Source of the DNA: Streptomyces sp. NBC_01197
GTDB lineage: Bacteria; Actinomycetota; Actinomycetes; Streptomycetales; Streptomycetaceae
Assembly (NCBI RefSeq): GCF_036010505.1
Contig: NZ_CP108569.1
Coordinates: forward strand, 4,951,001-5,015,000
Reading direction: 5' to 3'
DNA length: 64,000 nt
Shown here: positions 31,847 to 37,593 of the stretch, one piece after another
Layout: the number at the start of each line of letters is the position of its first letter
Position numbering within the stretch: position 1 is the stretch's first letter
The notes under the pieces: model-generated
Told to the model about the DNA's origin: nothing
The model's database searches: none
Seen by the model: the letters and a program-made list of their open reading frames with translations, nothing else
Made by a program: the position numbers and the translations under genes

Positions 31847-32030
31847 GTGTGCCTCCTGCTGTGCCGTGCTGCCTGTGCTGTTCGGCTGTGCCGTACTGCG
31901 TCTTCCCCGGAGGTCCGGCGGGTCCGGTCTCCGGGTGGTGCGGTGGTCGGATCCTCGCCGTGGGATTCCGGCCACCGTCCATTGTCCCGCCCCGCGCAAG
32001 AGGCCGTCCCGGCAGCGCCCCGCACCACGT

Positions 32031-32351
32031 CACAGCGGCCGGTACGCCACCCGGTGTTCCGCGAGATGAGCGAGGACCGCGTGGTTCGCCTCCCAGCCGT
32101 CAGGGCTGTGTCTTCGGCCGCCTGCGGCGGCGTGCCGGACTCCGTCCGGCGGTCACAGCGGCCGGTACGTCACCCGGTGTTCCGCGAGATGGGCGAGGAC
32201 CGCGTGGTTCGCCTCCCAGCCGTCAGGGCTGTGTCTTCGGCCGCCTGCGGCGGCGTGCCGGACTCCGTCCGGCGGTCACAGCGGCCGGTACGTCACCCGG
32301 TGTTCCGCGAGATGGGCGAGGACCGCGTGGTTCGCCTCCCAGCCGTCAGGG
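32031..32351. repeat. 123-bp tandem repeat (2.6 copies) of a gene end and its terminator
   Basis: Units begin at 32031, 32154 and 32277 with CACAGCGGCCGGTACG. The third unit is the true 3' end of the helicase gene; the other two are extra copies of its last 24 codons, stop codon and a spacer holding two hairpins (CCGGACGGAGTCCGG and GCCGCCGCAGGCGGC). Copies 2 and 3 are identical over their shared part; copy 1 differs at a few bases. It fills most of the 429-base stretch between 31847 and 32275, which otherwise has no gene. Confidence 0.92.
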
Positions 32352-33607
32352 AACTTCACCGTCACTCCCAGCTGCACCGGCTCCGTCGACGGGTGCTCGT
32401 CGAGCAGCCCGGCCACCCCCTCCCGGCACACCACGATGCAGGCGTGCCGGTGCCGTGACGCCAGGACGCAGAGCCTGCCCGTCTCCAGATGGAACGCCGT
32501 CGCGTCCGGGCGGCCCGACAGCGGATGCAGAACCACCGTCACGTCGAACTCCCGGCCCTGGAGGCGGTTGGCCGTGTCGACCGCCACGCCCGTCACCCCG
32601 AGCTCGGTGAGCGCCGACCGGACCGCGGCCGCCTGATCGCGGTGGGCCGTACCGACCGCGATACGGTCCGCCGTCAACGGCACCGGATCCGGCGACTGCT
32701 CACTCACCGCCGCGCCACCGCGGTCCAGCAGCCGCCGGACCACCAGGGCCACCGCCCGTACCGCCTCCGGGTCCGTACGCGGTGTGTGCCGGGCGGGAAG
32801 TTCGAGCAGACCCCAGCCCGCTTCCGCCGCCTCGTCCAGCACCCGGTCGGGGCCCGAACCGTCCGACGCCACCCCGAAGGTCAGCCGCCGGTCCCCATGG
32901 TCCGTACCGCTGCGGAACGGCGTGTACGGGTAGAACGCGTCCGAGACCAGCGGCGCCGCCGACGCGGGCAGCCGCCAGGAGACCGGCAGCCGGTGCTGCG
33001 GCAGCTCCGGATTGTGCGCGAGCAGGGTCGAGACCGCGCTGGACGACGGGTCGTACGCCAGCCCGGCCCACTGCTCGGCGCCGACCACGCTGAACGGGTC
33101 GAGCTGGCCGGGGTCGCCCACGAACAGAGCCCGTTCGAACAGCCCGGCCACAGCCAGCAGGGCGTCCGAGCGCATCTGGTACGCCTCGTCCACGATCGCG
33201 TGCCGCCAGGGCTCGACGCCCTTCACATGCGCCCACTTCGCGGCCGTCGAGATCACCACGTCGAGCCCGGCGAGATCCGCCGCCTTGGCGGACTTGCGGA
33301 CGTTCGGCAGGTCGTCCAGCGCCTTGTCGTACGGGTCGGGGTCGCTGCTGTGCAGCCGGCCGACCGGCAGCTCGGGGTCCTTCCCGGCAAGGCGGATGAC
33401 CAGGTCGTCCACCTGGGCATTGGTCTGCGCGACCACCATCAGCGGCCGTCCGGCGGCGGCCAGCTCACGGGCCGCGCGCACCACGAGCGTCGATTTGCCC
33501 GCGCCCGGCGGGGAGTCGACCACCACTCCGCGAGCGGTGCCGTTCAGCGTGTCGTCGAGGATCGCCCGCGTCGCACGGGCCGCCTCCGCGCCGGGGTCGA
33601 AGGTCAC
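32276..33607 (-). CDS. SF1-type DNA helicase / AAA ATPase (third gene of nuclease operon)
   Basis: A 443-residue ATPase of helicase superfamily 1. Walker A is SPPGAGKST (about 31-39), Walker B HAIVDEAYQM, motif III FVGDPGQLDP, motifs V-VI around VDTANRLQGREFDVTVV and VLASRHRHACIVV. It has the compact layout of AAA_12/UPF1-like C-terminal helicases rather than UvrD. ATG 33607 overlaps the upstream stop as ATGA. With the nuclease at 35262-36590 it resembles a split form of TM0106-type proteins, which fuse a RecB nuclease to such a helicase. Its 3' end has been tandemly duplicated downstream. Confidence 0.82.
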   Translation of the reverse strand: MTFDPGAEAARATRAILDDTLNGTARGVVVDSPPGAGKSTLVVRAARELAAAGRPLMVVAQTNAQVDDLVIRLAGKDPELPVGRLHSSDPDPYDKALDDLPNVRKSAKAADLAGLDVVISTAAKWAHVKGVEPWRHAIVDEAYQMRSDALLAVAGLFERALFVGDPGQLDPFSVVGAEQWAGLAYDPSSSAVSTLLAHNPELPQHRLPVSWRLPASAAPLVSDAFYPYTPFRSGTDHGDRRLTFGVASDGSGPDRVLDEAAEAGWGLLELPARHTPRTDPEAVRAVALVVRRLLDRGGAAVSEQSPDPVPLTADRIAVGTAHRDQAAAVRSALTELGVTGVAVDTANRLQGREFDVTVVLHPLSGRPDATAFHLETGRLCVLASRHRHACIVVCREGVAGLLDEHPSTEPVQLGVTVKFPDGWEANHAVLAHLAEHRVTYRPL

Positions 33608-35271
33608 AGCAGGTCCTCCGGGGTGACGGGATCGGGGCTCGTCTCAGGGCCGGATGCAGCGGAGGCCGCGGACACAGCAGCCGCGCCGGACACCGTGGAC
33701 GAGCCGTCCGACGGGCCGGCGGCGCCCGGTGGGCCGCCGTGTGTCCAGGGGGTGTCCTCCTGCGCGGGCAGCTCGGGCCCGCCCCGCGAGCTGTGCTCGA
33801 ACAGCGTCCAGCACAGCCGGTCACCCTTCTCCGGCACGGTCCCCGGTGCCGGTTCCCTGGCGCGGCCCATGCCGTTGGTCAGCCGCAGCACCACGGAGCC
33901 GTCCTCCTCGTACCGCACGAACTCGGCCGTCTGCGCCTTCGGCGGGTCGCCCGGAAGCGCGCGGTGGACCTTGGCGCGCTCCCCGATGTGCGGTGTGTCT
34001 TCCGTGCGGAGCGTCACCAGGGGGCGGGGGCTCGGGCGCTTCGACTCGCTCCACGCCATCACCACTTCCGTCACCTCACCGGCGAACGCCTCACCGGCGA
34101 GCCGCCGCCCCGCCATCACCAGCGGGTCGTCCAGGGCCTCCTGTGCCTCCAGCTGCGTCTGCGCGGTCTCGCGGGTGGCGAGCTTCTGCGCCGCCGTCAC
34201 CGCGTCGTCCCGGCGCGGCTGCGGCGGCTCGCCCGCCCGCACCCGGTCCCGGTGGCCGGTGAACGACCAGCGGTCCCGGGTCCACCGCTCGCCCGCCCTG
34301 GCCCCCTCGGGCAGCTCGCGCAGCAGCCCGAGCCCGTGCCACACGGCGTCCCAGGTGGGCCGGAGCTGCCCGGCCAGCAGCCTGCGGATCTCCCGCTCGG
34401 CGGCTGTCAGCTCACCGAGCCGGTCGTCGGCCGCCGGCCCGTCCTCGGCGGCGGCCAGTGCCGAACGCGCCGCGTCGTACCGTTCCACCGCCGGGGCCAG
34501 CAGCCTGTTGTCGAAAGCCGGATCGGTGGCGGGCCCGGCGGGCGGGCAGAGCAGCTGCCCGTCCCGGTCGCGGCCCAGCTCGGCCCGGAGCGCGGCCTCG
34601 GCCCCGGACGTCCCGTCTGCCGGGTCGATCCAGGCGAGCAGCGCGCCGAGGTGCTGGTCCTCCAGGCTGCTCTGGCCGGTGGCCCAGTGACGGTTCAGCA
34701 GGTCGGTCGCGGCGAGCAGCAGCGAGGACCCGGGGACCCGGGCGCGCTCACCGTAGTGCGTCAGCCAGCGGCCGAGCAGCGGGACGCGGGGCGGCGCCGG
34801 GTAGGGCGTCTCCGGATCCTCGTCAGCCGTACGCCGGAAGCGCATCGACCGTCCGAGGAGCCGGACGAAGTCGATGCCCGCCCGGCCCGGCACGATCAAC
34901 TGCGGGGCGTCCGCGCACAGCTCGGTCTCGACCTTGACCTTCTTCTTGGTCTCCGGGTCGGTCTCGGAGCGCTCGGCGGCCTCCACGTCGTCGGCGTACC
35001 CGTCGATGTACGGCAGGACGGCCTCGGCCAGCTCGGCCAGGAACGCGAACCGCAGATCCCGGTCGCGCGGCTGGGCCACGACCAGCAGCCTCGGCTCCGC
35101 GGGGTCCGTCCCGACGAGCGCCCCGAGCGGGGCGCCGGCCTCACCCGCCGTGGTGAGGGGGACGAACACCAGTGGGCGCGCGGAGAGATGGCGGTGCCGG
35201 ACGGTCGCGGTGGGCTCCGCACGGCCGGACCGTACGGCTTCCAGCCGGGCGAGCGTACTGATCAGCGACAT
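33604..35271 (-). CDS. Unknown 555-aa protein, middle gene of nuclease-helicase operon
   Basis: I do not recognise this protein. It is soluble and Asp/Glu/Arg-rich. An N-terminal part opens with HLSARPLVFVPLTTAGEAG; an acidic/basic patch ETDPETKKKVKVETE lies near residue 110; the helical middle has many Ala/Glu/Arg residues. A beta-rich segment (about 410-500) ends in NGMGRAREPAPGTVPEKGD, followed by a Ser/Ala/Pro-rich tail. It overlaps both neighbours (ten bases with the nuclease, four with the helicase), so the three proteins are made together. A scaffold or DNA-binding subunit linking nuclease and helicase is the simplest guess. Confidence 0.75.
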   Translation of the reverse strand: MSLISTLARLEAVRSGRAEPTATVRHRHLSARPLVFVPLTTAGEAGAPLGALVGTDPAEPRLLVVAQPRDRDLRFAFLAELAEAVLPYIDGYADDVEAAERSETDPETKKKVKVETELCADAPQLIVPGRAGIDFVRLLGRSMRFRRTADEDPETPYPAPPRVPLLGRWLTHYGERARVPGSSLLLAATDLLNRHWATGQSSLEDQHLGALLAWIDPADGTSGAEAALRAELGRDRDGQLLCPPAGPATDPAFDNRLLAPAVERYDAARSALAAAEDGPAADDRLGELTAAEREIRRLLAGQLRPTWDAVWHGLGLLRELPEGARAGERWTRDRWSFTGHRDRVRAGEPPQPRRDDAVTAAQKLATRETAQTQLEAQEALDDPLVMAGRRLAGEAFAGEVTEVVMAWSESKRPSPRPLVTLRTEDTPHIGERAKVHRALPGDPPKAQTAEFVRYEEDGSVVLRLTNGMGRAREPAPGTVPEKGDRLCWTLFEHSSRGGPELPAQEDTPWTHGGPPGAAGPSDGSSTVSGAAAVSAASAASGPETSPDPVTPEDLL

Positions 35272-36590
35272 ACCGGCGAGCCTTCCTGCTGAGGCGTTGG
35301 CTGCTGATGCACCGGCTGCTGGCCGGCTGTCTGCTGCAGAACCGGCTGCGGCGCCTCTGCCAGTGCCTCCGCCCGCAGCGCCGCGGCCCTGCGCAGCGCC
35401 GCCACCGTCGGGTCCGACGGATCGCCCTGCTCCCCGTGCGCCGCGGCCAGCACCGCGTCGACCGTCGTCAGCCCGCCCAGCTCGCCGCGGACCCCCCGGC
35501 CCAGCGCCTCCACCGCGCCGGTGTCACGGGCCCGGCCTCGGCAGTGGAAGGCCAGCTCGCACGCGGCCAGGCACTCCGGGGCGTACGCAGCGCCGACCGA
35601 TTCGACCGCCGCCGTGAGCTCGGCGGGCGGCAGACCCGGGTCGAAGGTGGTGCCTTCGGGCAGGGCCGCCGCGATGTCCTCGATACGGGTCAGCCGGGCC
35701 AGCTGACGCCGGGTCACCGCGAGTTGCTTGCGTACGTCGACGGCCGAGCCTGTCGGCAGGTTGGAGAAGTCCTTGGGGCACACCAGCAGGATCCGGTCGT
35801 GCACCGATGCGGTGCCTGCGCTGCCTGCCTTGCCGGCCTCGCCTGCGCTGTCCGAGCTGTCCGCCCTTGTCTCTGAGCTGTCCGAACTGTCCGCGCGGTT
35901 GACGTGCGCCGCGATCCGCTCCAGCGCCAGCACGTACACCGCGGACTGCCGGGCGGCCGCCCCCACCTTCGCCGCGTCCGCCGACCCGTCGATCATCGGG
36001 AACGACTTGATCTCGATCACCGTCCAGCGCCCGGCCGGATCCACCACCACCGCGTCCGGCTCCAGATAGGCGGGCGAGCCCGCCACCTCCAGCGCCAGCA
36101 TCGGGTGGTCGAACAGGGTCCACCCGCCGGCCTCCGTGGCCTCACGCAGTGCCAGCGCCGTGCGGGCGGCGCGGCCCTCGGGGCCCGCCGCCGTGAGATC
36201 GGGGACCGCCACGTCCACCGGTTCGGCCGTGCCCATGTGCTCCGCGAGGAGCCGCATCAGGTCGGCGCCGCCGTCGGCCTTGACCCTGGCCTCGAAGGCA
36301 TTGCCCCGCATGAAGGCGAACTGGGACTGGCCGAAGGCCGAAGGGGAGCCGAGGGCCTGTGCGAGAACCGTCTTGTTCACCCCGGCGCCGTCGAGCAGCG
36401 CACGCCGCTCGCAGCCGGGGTTGGCCGCGAGGGCCGCCAGCGCGCGGGCGTCCAGCGGCTGCGGCGCGACAGACGGGCCCCGCAGCTCAGCGAGCCGCTG
36501 TCGGAGTGCCGTCGTCGACTGTGTCGCCTGCGGTGTCGCCTGCTGACGCGGAAGAGGCGGAGGAGGTCCGCTGCCCGGGGAATCGCTCAC
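35262..36590 (-). CDS. RecB-type PD-(D/E)XK nuclease with Fe-S cysteine signature
   Basis: A 442-residue putative nuclease. Active-site elements appear in order: Glu100 in RGNAFEARV, Asp179 in YLEPDAVVV, Glu193 and Lys195 in VIEIKSF, and the RecB Q-x3-Y motif in ARQSAVYVLAL (Gln215, Tyr219). Cys60 (NPGCERRALL) plus Cys340, Cys344 and Cys350 (ECLAACELAFHC) give the one-plus-three cysteine arrangement of Cas4/AddB/Dna2 iron-sulfur nucleases. A low-complexity Ser/Asp/Ala insert lies at 234-262. GTG 36590 is assumed; it makes the gene overlap the PAP2 gene by 104 bases, so a later start is possible. Confidence 0.75.
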   Translation of the reverse strand: MSDSPGSGPPPPLPRQQATPQATQSTTALRQRLAELRGPSVAPQPLDARALAALAANPGCERRALLDGAGVNKTVLAQALGSPSAFGQSQFAFMRGNAFEARVKADGGADLMRLLAEHMGTAEPVDVAVPDLTAAGPEGRAARTALALREATEAGGWTLFDHPMLALEVAGSPAYLEPDAVVVDPAGRWTVIEIKSFPMIDGSADAAKVGAAARQSAVYVLALERIAAHVNRADSSDSSETRADSSDSAGEAGKAGSAGTASVHDRILLVCPKDFSNLPTGSAVDVRKQLAVTRRQLARLTRIEDIAAALPEGTTFDPGLPPAELTAAVESVGAAYAPECLAACELAFHCRGRARDTGAVEALGRGVRGELGGLTTVDAVLAAAHGEQGDPSDPTVAALRRAAALRAEALAEAPQPVLQQTAGQQPVHQQPTPQQEGSPVCR

Positions 36591-37398
36591 CCGGGGAAGT
36601 CTTGCACCCGGCACCGACAATCGGGGACGGACCGACAGCCGCACGGGAGGAGAACCGGTCCCGTATTCGGTCGGCCGAGCGCACCACGGGCCGGGCGAGC
36701 AGCAGCCCCACACCCATCACCGCGACCCCCGCGATCGCGTCGAGCAGATAGTGGTTGGCCGTGCCCAGCACCACGAAAGTGATGGTCAACGGGTAGACCA
36801 CCCCGAGTATTCGGGCCAGCGGCGTACGGCCGTGGCGCCACAGCATCACCCCGCACCACAGCGCCCACCCCACATGCAGGCTCGGCATCGCGGCGAACTG
36901 GTTGGTCATCCCGCCGAGTCCGCGCGGCGCACTCGCGTCGTCGCCCCACCAGCCGTACGAGCTGTACTGCGCCATCGTGTCGACAAAACCCTCGGCATGG
37001 TCGAGCAGCCGCGGCGGACAGGTCGGGGTCAGCGTGAAGCCGATCAGGCCGAGCAGGGTGGAGACCATCAGCCAGGTGCGCGCCATGCGGTACTGGGCGG
37101 GGCGGCGGTGGAAGAGCCATATGAGGATGCCCGGTGTCACCAGGTAATGCAGCGAGGCATAGGCGAAGTCGGCGGGTATCCCGATGGCCGGGGTGTGCGT
37201 GAACAGCCTGTTCAGCGGGTGCTCGATGTTGATGTGCAGGAACTTCTCGGCGCGCAGCAGCGAAAGACCGTGATGGACCGCGTCCTCGGTGCTGCCGCGT
37301 GCGAGCAGCCGGCCCGACGAGTACGCGGTGTAGACGACAGCGATCACTAGGAGCTCTGCCCACCAGCGTGGCCGGTCACGGTTCGCGGTGTACGGCAT
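36487..37398 (-). CDS. PAP2 superfamily membrane phosphatase (inositolphosphotransferase Aur1/Ipt1-like)
   Basis: A 303-residue integral membrane protein with about six helices. PAP2-type motifs are present: TCPPRLLDHAEG, MPSLHVGWALW with the catalytic His, and GTANHYLLDAIAG with the second His and Asp. The membrane layout matches the PAP2_3 group that includes Aur1/Ipt1-like enzymes acting on lipid phosphates. ATG 37398 is preferred to ATG 37413 because GGAGAG lies seven bases before it. The C-terminal 60 residues are a hydrophilic Ser/Ala tail that overlaps the start of the nuclease gene. Confidence 0.82.
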   Translation of the reverse strand: MPYTANRDRPRWWAELLVIAVVYTAYSSGRLLARGSTEDAVHHGLSLLRAEKFLHINIEHPLNRLFTHTPAIGIPADFAYASLHYLVTPGILIWLFHRRPAQYRMARTWLMVSTLLGLIGFTLTPTCPPRLLDHAEGFVDTMAQYSSYGWWGDDASAPRGLGGMTNQFAAMPSLHVGWALWCGVMLWRHGRTPLARILGVVYPLTITFVVLGTANHYLLDAIAGVAVMGVGLLLARPVVRSADRIRDRFSSRAAVGPSPIVGAGCKTSPGERFPGQRTSSASSASAGDTAGDTVDDGTPTAAR

Positions 37399-37593
37399 CC
37401 GAATGCTCTCCATCGTCTGTTCAAACGGGGCCTGTCACCCGGCGTACCACCATAGGGCGTATGGAATGACGAGTTCAGGCGGCCCCTCTTTGCCGGGGCA
37501 CGGTAGGAGTGACGCCGGAGCCGTCCGCCGGGTTGCTCCCGGAACCGGTACGCGATGATGGGAGAAGCATCACCGCACGGAGGAGAGACCGTC

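What the first reader, a model, noticed from the sequence alone, without database searches (positions are those of the whole stretch)
32276..36590. Three-gene operon of Fe-S RecB-type nuclease, unknown protein and SF1 helicase
The first protein has a PD-(D/E)XK core with Q-x3-Y and a one-plus-three cysteine pattern (Cys60; Cys340, 344, 350) like Cas4, AddB and Dna2. The third is an SF1 helicase with complete motifs. All three reading frames overlap. I know of no named system with this three-part layout; it could be a DNA end-processing or anti-phage complex additional to the genus's usual AdnAB-type enzyme. The middle 555-aa protein has no recognisable family and may define the system.
Basis: partly seen in the sequence, partly recalled or inferred. 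Interest (0 to 1): 0.78.

Follow-up and report, generated by a model that had tools for sequence, protein, structure and literature searches.

The report
Helicase–nuclease trio, Wadjet-partner family
Streptomyces carry a three-gene DNA-cutting and DNA-unwinding machine on the chromosome, and relatives of it in many actinobacteria sit, with their own DNA-end-sensing enzyme, directly beside the plasmid-destroying Wadjet immune system, which suggests an undescribed machine that finishes off DNA that Wadjet has cut.

Summary
Window 32276-36590 (- strand) carries an overlapping trio: a PD-(D/E)XK nuclease with a 1+3 cysteine set, a 555-aa protein of no known family, and a UPF1/Dna2-like SF1 helicase. 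The cysteines are invariant in the 118 aligned rows (105 distinct sequences). The window's copy is not a patchy defence gene: the middle protein matches in 37 of 37 same-genus genomes, and two flanking genes are conserved in 5 of 5 loci. Of 80 named loci, 47 have that divergent SbcCD; 41 of these have Wadjet genes close by, of type I, II or III, typically about 156 nt away. Of the other 33 (some on short contigs) none does. A separate, unranked genome draw, sharing four loci with the 80, gave 5 of 5 against 0 of 15. I read the family as a split Dna2-like DNA-end machine: housekeeping in the window, probably working with Wadjet in the accessory form. My searches listed no paper on this link.

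The parts
35262..36590 (-). nuc: PD-(D/E)XK nuclease of Fe-S type, 442 aa, GTG start (ORF open to 36713)
   Evidence: motifs and 4 Cys in 118 rows; weak profile support: PDDEXK_1 in 6 of 30 members, best E 0.0023; hhalign P 0.0025 or 0.48 by reference set
33604..35271 (-). mid: conserved 555-aa protein of no known family, overlaps nuc by 10 nt
   Evidence: no Pfam/PADLOC family; matched in 37 of 37 same-genus genomes; found in 79 of 80 accessory loci, the other (L168) being cut by the contig end
32276..33607 (-). hel: SF1 helicase, UPF1/SMUBP2/Dna2-like core, overlaps mid by 4 nt
   Evidence: Pfam AAA_11, AAA_12 over cut-off; PDB matches SMUBP-2, DNA2, UPF1
35262..35271 (-). 10-nt overlap nuc/mid
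33604..33607 (-). 4-nt overlap mid/hel (GTGA)
36487..37413 (-). flank, not part: PAP2 phosphatase gene; its end overlaps the nuc start by 104 nt; syntenic in 5 of 5 core loci
32029..32351 (.). flank: 123-bp tandem repeat, 2.6 copies, covers the 3' end of hel

Best explanation
The trio is a split Dna2-like DNA-end processing machine. In the model the helicase unwinds from a DNA end, the Fe-S-type nuclease cuts the strand that is fed out, and the middle protein holds the two together. In the window it is the housekeeping form of Streptomyces, presumably used on chromosomal ends with the cell's ordinary SbcCD. The accessory form adds a small fourth protein, and its Wadjet-linked clade also carries a dedicated SbcC-SbcD (Rad50-Mre11) end sensor and is encoded immediately beside Wadjet. 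There I propose that Wadjet linearises closed circular DNA and the SbcCD-nuclease-helicase set then resects or degrades the ends, so that the cut cannot be resealed by end joining. Shown here: the gene content, the motifs and the associations. Inferred: complex formation, activities, polarity, the Fe-S cluster and the order of action.
For: Motif order C60 / GxxFE / D179 / ExK / Q-x3-Y / C-x3-C-x5-C, conserved in 118 rows. UPF1/Dna2-type helicase core. Genes overlap and co-occur. 75 of 80 accessory loci hold nuc, mid and hel; the other five are cut by a contig end before mid or hel. SbcCD stands next to the cassette in two arrangements, divergent (47 of 80) and codirectional (8 of 80). Its SbcD is a separate subfamily: 68-92% identity among the five cassette copies against about 30-40% for the other SbcD found in 37 of 37 same-genus genomes. 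SbcD metallo-phosphoesterase motifs in 54 of 54 full copies: 49 by pattern, 5 read by eye from the printed misses; SbcC Walker A in 43 of 45. Wadjet beside divergent-SbcCD cassettes: 38 of 47 by tblastn plus 3 by PADLOC models = 41 of 47; codirectional 0 of 8; without SbcCD 0 of 25. Gap to the nearest Jet match: median 156 nt, 37 of 40 under 650 nt; 25 beyond hel, 15 beyond SbcC. Wadjet type changes at least 16 times on the helicase tree among 40 labelled rows; shuffled labels need 19.1 on average, range 15-23, so types are swapped almost freely beside the same cassette. 13 named genera. Unranked class-wide draw: of 20 full cassettes, 5 with SbcCD all have Wadjet genes, 15 without have none.
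Against: The window copy has neither SbcCD nor Wadjet beside it, so its role is argued from relatives. Nuclease homology by profile is weak: hhalign P 0.0025 (probability 12%) against AdnB-type and pooled PDDEXK_1 sets, but 0.48 against the small single-domain set, and nuc against an unrelated helicase region gave P 0.027. MarR_2 matched nearly as many members as PDDEXK_1 (5 against 6 of 30). Cys spacing is Cx3Cx5C, not the recalled Cx2Cx5C. Two accessory lineages have lost catalytic residues (L069/L071/L076 and L153/L154/L156) while keeping the cysteines. The idea that the end of mid supplies the 1B barrel failed its test (P 0.47). 25 of 80 accessory loci lack SbcCD. Two divergent loci sit by type I restriction genes instead of Wadjet (L121, L128). 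SbcCD is in pieces in L067 and cut short in L100. A crude CxxC-hook pattern was found in 33 of 45 SbcC. Wadjet-linked cassettes form one clade, so counts of loci are not independent events; the yes/no state of Wadjet changes 7 times on the tree. No structure, no experiment.
Confidence: 0.6

Rival explanations
1. Pure housekeeping repair machine. The accessory copies sit beside Wadjet only because both collect in defence islands and at chromosome ends; there is no joint function.
For: Core copy is genus-wide and syntenic. PMC10482375 (passages read): Wadjet in 42% of actinobacterial genomes and enriched at Streptomyces chromosome extremities. Some accessory loci lie near replicon ends. Two divergent loci are next to type I restriction genes.
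Against: Wadjet is immediately adjacent (median 156 nt), on either side, in 13 genera, with all three types, and in my samples only beside copies that carry divergent SbcCD (41/47 vs 0/33; 5/5 vs 0/15). Island hitchhiking would not depend on SbcCD nor prefer Wadjet so strongly.
Confidence: 0.2
2. Stand-alone anti-phage or anti-plasmid system, also in the core form.
For: Helicase resembles parts of Mokosh proteins (MkoC E 1.7e-7, MkoA E 1e-6). Second copies exist in some genomes and on two plasmids.
Against: The middle protein in 37 of 37 same-genus genomes and conserved flanks fit vertical inheritance, not patchy defence. The middle protein has no match in phages or viral contigs. PADLOC has no model for nuc or mid.
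Confidence: 0.12
3. The cassette maintains or processes the ends of linear replicons (telomeres) and not DNA cut by Wadjet.
For: Copies 13 kb from the end of a linear plasmid, about 5 kb from the end of the 8.27-Mb chromosome NZ_CP029617.1 and about 18 kb from the end of G756 C1. The Rad50 complex recognises hairpin and protein-linked ends (review PMC10586767, passages).
Against: The core trio lies at about 4.98 of 7.63 Mb. Wadjet itself prefers extremities, which explains the location. Also present in genera not known for linear replicons (recalled).
Confidence: 0.06
4. An RNA-directed (UPF1-like) helicase with a nuclease acting on RNA or R-loops.
For: The PDB matches include UPF1 and SMUBP-2, which act on RNA as well (recalled).
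Against: PD-(D/E)XK nuclease motifs, SbcCD and Wadjet partners all point to DNA.
Confidence: 0.02

Closest known systems
Dna2 (eukaryotic nuclease-helicase)
   Same: Fe-S-type RecB nuclease plus UPF1-like SF1 helicase, in the same order, nuclease first; in eukaryotes works after Mre11-Rad50 (recalled). The helicase profile matches DNA2 at E 2.5e-9.
   Different: Three separate chains here, with a middle protein of unknown fold; no fusion confirmed.
AdnAB / AddAB / RecBCD
   Same: Helicase plus RecB-type nuclease for DNA ends; AddB-type Fe-S nuclease (recalled).
   Different: There the nuclease is fused to a UvrD-type helicase (recalled); here the helicase matches AAA_11/AAA_12 and nuclease and helicase are separate. 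An AdnAB-like pair is present besides.
HerA-NurA with Mre11-Rad50 (archaea)
   Same: Separate helicase and nuclease that cooperate with Mre11-Rad50 in end resection (abstract starts listed).
   Different: Different enzyme families; here PD-(D/E)XK nuclease and SF1 helicase.
Wadjet (JetABCD, types I-III)
   Same: Immediate neighbour of the accessory cassette; all three types found.
   Different: The cassette proteins are not Jet proteins, and the window copy has no Wadjet beside it.
Mokosh, PLuB and other SF1-helicase defence proteins
   Same: Related helicase core.
   Different: No match of nuc or mid to any of their models.

Membership tests
Fe-S PD-(D/E)XK (Cas4/AddB/Dna2-type) nuclease | catalytic D...(D/E)xK followed by QxxxY | tested here: met
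   window D179, E193/K195, Q215/Y219; Q and Y 118/118, D, E, K 115/118 rows
Fe-S PD-(D/E)XK (Cas4/AddB/Dna2-type) nuclease | one Cys before and three after the core, C...Cx2Cx5C (spacing recalled) | tested here: inconclusive
   1+3 Cys in 118/118 rows, but spacing is Cx3Cx5C
Fe-S PD-(D/E)XK (Cas4/AddB/Dna2-type) nuclease | sequence-profile homology to the family | tested here: inconclusive
   PDDEXK_1 in 6 of 30 members, best E 0.0023, window protein none; hhalign P 0.0025 (AdnB-type and pooled sets) but 0.48 (small set); controls mid 0.18, hel 0.57, nuc vs helicase region 0.027
Fe-S PD-(D/E)XK (Cas4/AddB/Dna2-type) nuclease | bound 4Fe-4S cluster | not testable with these tools
   structure prediction switched off; needs purified protein
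Dna2 | UPF1-like SF1 helicase core | tested here: met
   AAA_11/AAA_12; DNA2 and SMUBP-2 by profile
Dna2 | nuclease and helicase in one polypeptide | tested here: not met
   three ORFs in the window; separate matches in the loci
AdnAB/AddAB/RecBCD | UvrD-type helicase fused to RecB nuclease | tested here: not met
   the genome's AdnAB-like pair is elsewhere
Wadjet | JetA, JetB, JetC, JetD proteins | tested here: not met
   no Jet match for nuc, mid, hel; Jet genes only as neighbours of accessory copies
HerA-NurA | HerA-type ATPase and NurA nuclease | tested here: not met
   no such family listed for any of the three
Mokosh | MkoA/B or MkoC full-length proteins | tested here: not met
   only short stretches of the helicase match MkoA and MkoC

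The most novel reading that the evidence does not exclude
Actinobacteria carry an undescribed Wadjet companion: an accessory set (SbcC, SbcD, a small protein Hyp, Fe-S-type nuclease, middle protein, SF1 helicase) that is exchanged between type I, II and III Wadjet loci and destroys or resects the DNA that Wadjet linearises, so that it cannot be rejoined. The genus-wide Streptomyces trio is its housekeeping cousin, a bacterial split Dna2 that works after Rad50-Mre11.
Probability: 0.5. Interest if true: 0.9.

Novelty: new variant of a known kind. Interest (0 to 1): 0.8.

Why it matters
In the passages I read Wadjet is the JetABCD complex that cuts circular plasmids and is common in actinobacteria; what happens to the linear DNA afterwards is not treated there. 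A dedicated end-processing set locked to Wadjet would make that step testable and would extend Wadjet from a cutter to a cut-and-clear pathway. It would also give bacteria a counterpart of the eukaryotic Mre11-Rad50 plus Dna2 resection pair, and a likely role for a gene trio present in 35 of 37 sampled genomes of the genus, whose middle protein is nearly always named only hypothetical.

Tried and rejected
Natural fusion in G010: a 1478-aa open frame seemed to join mid and hel, but the end of mid lies in another frame and no nuclease is found; read as a decayed or mis-sequenced copy and dropped.

Middle protein as carrier of the helicase 1B beta-barrel: suggested by eye and by TOBE_2 in 2 of 29 members (best E 0.023), but profile comparison with 16 actinobacterial UPF1-like helicases gave P 0.47. 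Not claimed. Caa3_CtaG in 7 of 29 members (best E 0.0014) was taken as chance.

PDB search with the nuclease profile returned designed repeat proteins and chance matches; with the middle profile, chance matches. 'SseB family', 'PE-PGRS' and 'Membrane protein' names on single homologues were disregarded.

Mobile-element origin of the core copy: mid has no phage hit and no viral contig. The plasmid hits are three: two Streptomyces plasmids carrying the accessory form, and an 11.85-Mb Nonomuraea record filed as a plasmid.

Bias check: the 80 named loci are the best 80 of 319 relatives of the Hyp alignment, whose first sequence is a Wadjet-linked plasmid copy, so their proportions are biased towards that clade. 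The class-wide draw was made to correct this. Two of its 22 matches (L241, L242) had no nuc, mid or hel found beside them and were left out of the 20. Three of the 80 loci (L095-L097) are near-copies from one assembly, and L105 and L129 come from one assembly. Several loci counted as without Wadjet are short or end-cut (e.g. L119, L133, L134, L148, L166, L168), so absence there is only partly tested. A zinc-hook scan of SbcC was too crude to use.
Full report
What is there. On the - strand of window 32276-36590 three genes follow each other with overlaps of 10 and 4 nt: nuc (35262-36590), mid (33604-35271), hel (32276-33607). The nuclease start at GTG 36590 is shared by relatives that begin MS-D/E and overlaps the end of an upstream PAP2 gene by 104 nt. 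Of the three, only the helicase gets a family name that reaches a cut-off. By sequence it belongs with SMUBP-2, Dna2 and UPF1. The genus is taken as Streptomyces from the names of the closest homologues.

Nuclease. The protein shows, in order, an N-terminal Cys (C60), RGNxFE, EPD179, VxE193IK195, Q215xxxY219 and C340xxxC344xxxxxC350. I tried 123 loci; 118 rows passed a 75% coverage filter. In their MAFFT alignment the four Cys, Q and Y are invariant; D179, E193 and K195 are each present in 115; E100 in 112. Removing records fetched twice leaves 106 rows, 105 distinct. In the 30-row alignment C60 is nearly, not fully, invariant; one row (L027) starts downstream of it by my choice of start. The catalytic exceptions fall in two groups: three Streptomyces second copies (L069, L071, L076; E100, E193 and K195 changed) and three Planotetraspora (L153, L154, L156; E100 and D179 changed). 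The topology is that of the iron-staple nucleases Cas4, AddB and Dna2 (recalled), with one extra residue between the second and third Cys. Formal homology is weak: PDDEXK_1 matches 6 of 30 members, best E 0.0023, and MarR_2 5 of 30, best E 0.011. hhalign gives P 0.0025 against 21 AdnB-type and against 30 pooled PDDEXK_1 domains, but 0.48 against the 9 small ones; controls are mid 0.18 and hel 0.57, and nuc against a helicase region gave 0.027. The case rests on the motifs.

Distribution of the window form. Of 61 related genomes the middle protein matches in 44: 37 of 37 same genus, 7 of 15 same order, 0 of 9 same class. Three of the seven (G039, G049, G051) and the second copies in G009, G022, G033 and G036 are the accessory form. 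Nuclease and helicase are found in 43 each (helicase at E 1e-20). G001 (79% complete) lacks a helicase match. G010 lacks a nuclease even by profile and has a broken middle. In a phylum draw of 396 genomes 14 have the middle protein, 12 of them same genus; in one, G261, the helicase gene lies 37 kb away from the other two. The core copy is flanked by the same PAP2 and histidine-phosphatase genes in 5 of 5 loci read at 20 kb, and by the GGDEF/EAL gene in 4 of 5 (L087 shows none). That fits a vertically inherited housekeeping locus in the chromosome interior (4.95-5.02 of 7.63 Mb). An AdnAB-like pair is also present.

The accessory form. Second copies in some genomes and on two Streptomyces plasmids follow a 281-residue protein, Hyp, with no convincing family. 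A scan of the species-genome collection with the Hyp alignment gave 319 relatives, of which the best 80 were kept. 75 of 80 have nuc, mid and hel; the other five (L119, L122, L148, L166, L168) are cut by a contig end. In 47 of 80 an SbcC-SbcD pair lies divergently upstream; in 8 of 80 it follows in the same direction; in 25 of 80 there is none. In L100 SbcD is cut short and no SbcC was found, and on plasmid L067 SbcCD lies in pieces. This SbcD is not the ordinary one: the five cassette copies among 61 relatives share 68-92% with the query, while 37 of 37 same-genus genomes also have, or only have, an SbcD at about 30-40%.

Wadjet. Next to one plasmid copy PADLOC finds complete type I Wadjet, JetA1-JetD1; the other plasmid has the same genes by annotation and tblastn. 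Elsewhere PADLOC finds type I (L117), type II (L089, L098, L112) and type III (L105). tblastn with these proteins finds Jet genes beside 38 of 47 divergent loci (16 type I, 13 type II, 9 type III), 0 of 8 codirectional and 0 of 25 without SbcCD; a few of these contigs are short. PADLOC adds JetC3 in L104, L150 and L158 and JetD3 in L104, so 41 of 47. The six others are L090 (end of a chromosome), L115, L119 (4.3-kb contig), L134 (13-kb contig), and L121 and L128, which lie by type I restriction genes. The distance from cassette to the nearest Jet match is 6-3942 nt, median 156, 37 of 40 under 650 (the 40 are the 38 plus the two plasmids); 25 lie beyond hel and 15 beyond SbcC. On a quick helicase tree of 94 rows (SH-aLRT only, midpoint root) the 40 Wadjet-linked rows fall in one clade of 46 (98), which also holds 4 SbcCD rows without Wadjet and 2 without SbcCD; core Streptomyces form another clade (100). 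Among the 40 rows the Wadjet type changes at least 16 times, against 19.1 on average for shuffled labels, range 15-23; presence or absence of Wadjet changes 7 times. Closely related cassettes thus sit by different Wadjet types, for example L103/L108 and L098/L099. Thirteen named genera are involved.

Sampling control. The 80 loci were ranked by likeness to a Wadjet-linked copy, so I used a second, unranked draw: 394 genomes of the class, 22 with a Hyp match, none in the window's own genome. All 22 places were fetched. 20 are full cassettes; two (L241, L242) had no nuc, mid or hel found beside them and were set aside. Five of 20 carry SbcCD and all five have Jet genes (types II, II, III, I, II). 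Fifteen lack SbcCD and none has Jet genes. Eleven loci of the core and other trio forms, read at 20 kb, show neither SbcCD nor Jet genes.

Interpretation. Rad50-Mre11 recognises and opens DNA ends, and in eukaryotes Dna2 and in archaea HerA-NurA then take over (recalled; HerA-NurA abstract starts seen in the listing). A UPF1/Dna2-like helicase with an Fe-S-type nuclease beside SbcCD fits the same role. Wadjet cuts small circular DNA (review PMC10586767, passages read), and actinobacteria often have end joining (recalled), so a cut plasmid could be resealed unless its ends are removed. I therefore propose that the accessory set processes Wadjet products, and that the window trio is the housekeeping version acting on chromosomal ends. 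Each biochemical step is inferred.

Literature. Searches for PLuB, Dna2 with Streptomyces, Wadjet with SbcCD, helicase and nuclease, Wadjet with Streptomyces, Wadjet with Mre11/Rad50, Wadjet with exonuclease or co-occurrence, Wadjet with SbcD, and Wadjet with end joining listed no paper, by title or abstract start, about this association; four lists were capped (15 of 17, 20 of 22, 20 of 69, 15 of 26). I read passages of PMC10586767, PMC12624138, PMC10482375 and PMC12287153, and the passages shown do not mention it. PMC10482375 reports Wadjet in 42% of actinobacteria and its enrichment at Streptomyces chromosome ends. Most subscription papers and bioRxiv are outside the library, so absence from print is not shown.

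Limits. No structure prediction was available. The fold and role of mid and Hyp are unknown; my 1B-barrel idea for mid failed its test. The Fe-S cluster, helicase polarity and nuclease activity are untested.

Noticed in passing
window 32029-32351: A 123-bp tandem repeat, 2.6 copies at 99% match, duplicates the 3' end of the helicase gene.
   Followed up: no
L069, L071, L076 and L153, L154, L156: Two accessory lineages have lost nuclease catalytic residues (E193/K195 and E100; D179 and E100) yet keep all four cysteines: a possible structural or regulatory role of a dead nuclease.
   Followed up: partly
L133, L135, L140, L141, L155, L162, L164, L167: A second arrangement with SbcD-SbcC codirectional after hel (Actinoplanes, Paractinoplanes, Amycolatopsis, Kibdelosporangium, Nocardia, Micromonospora, Crossiella), without Wadjet found nearby in 8 of 8.
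   Followed up: partly
L121, L128: Two Nocardia cassettes with SbcCD have type I restriction-modification genes nearby and no Wadjet found.
   Followed up: partly
L090, L066, G756:C1:18087: Several Streptomyces accessory cassettes lie within about 5-18 kb of the end of a chromosome or linear plasmid.
   Followed up: partly
L115 10902-12497: Amycolatopsis iheyensis has a shortened frame that begins as the nuclease and continues as the middle protein.
   Followed up: no
G010:C2:4560000-4566500 (L025): One genome of the genus with no nuclease gene found and the middle gene split over two frames: decay or sequencing error.
   Followed up: partly
G261:C1:3131940 and 3169165-3171716: A distant genome keeps nuclease and middle adjacent but encodes the helicase 37 kb away.
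   Followed up: partly
L105 2937-3758 and relatives: A 256-274-aa gene of no family beside JetA3 (8 of 82 loci), possibly the type III JetB.
   Followed up: partly
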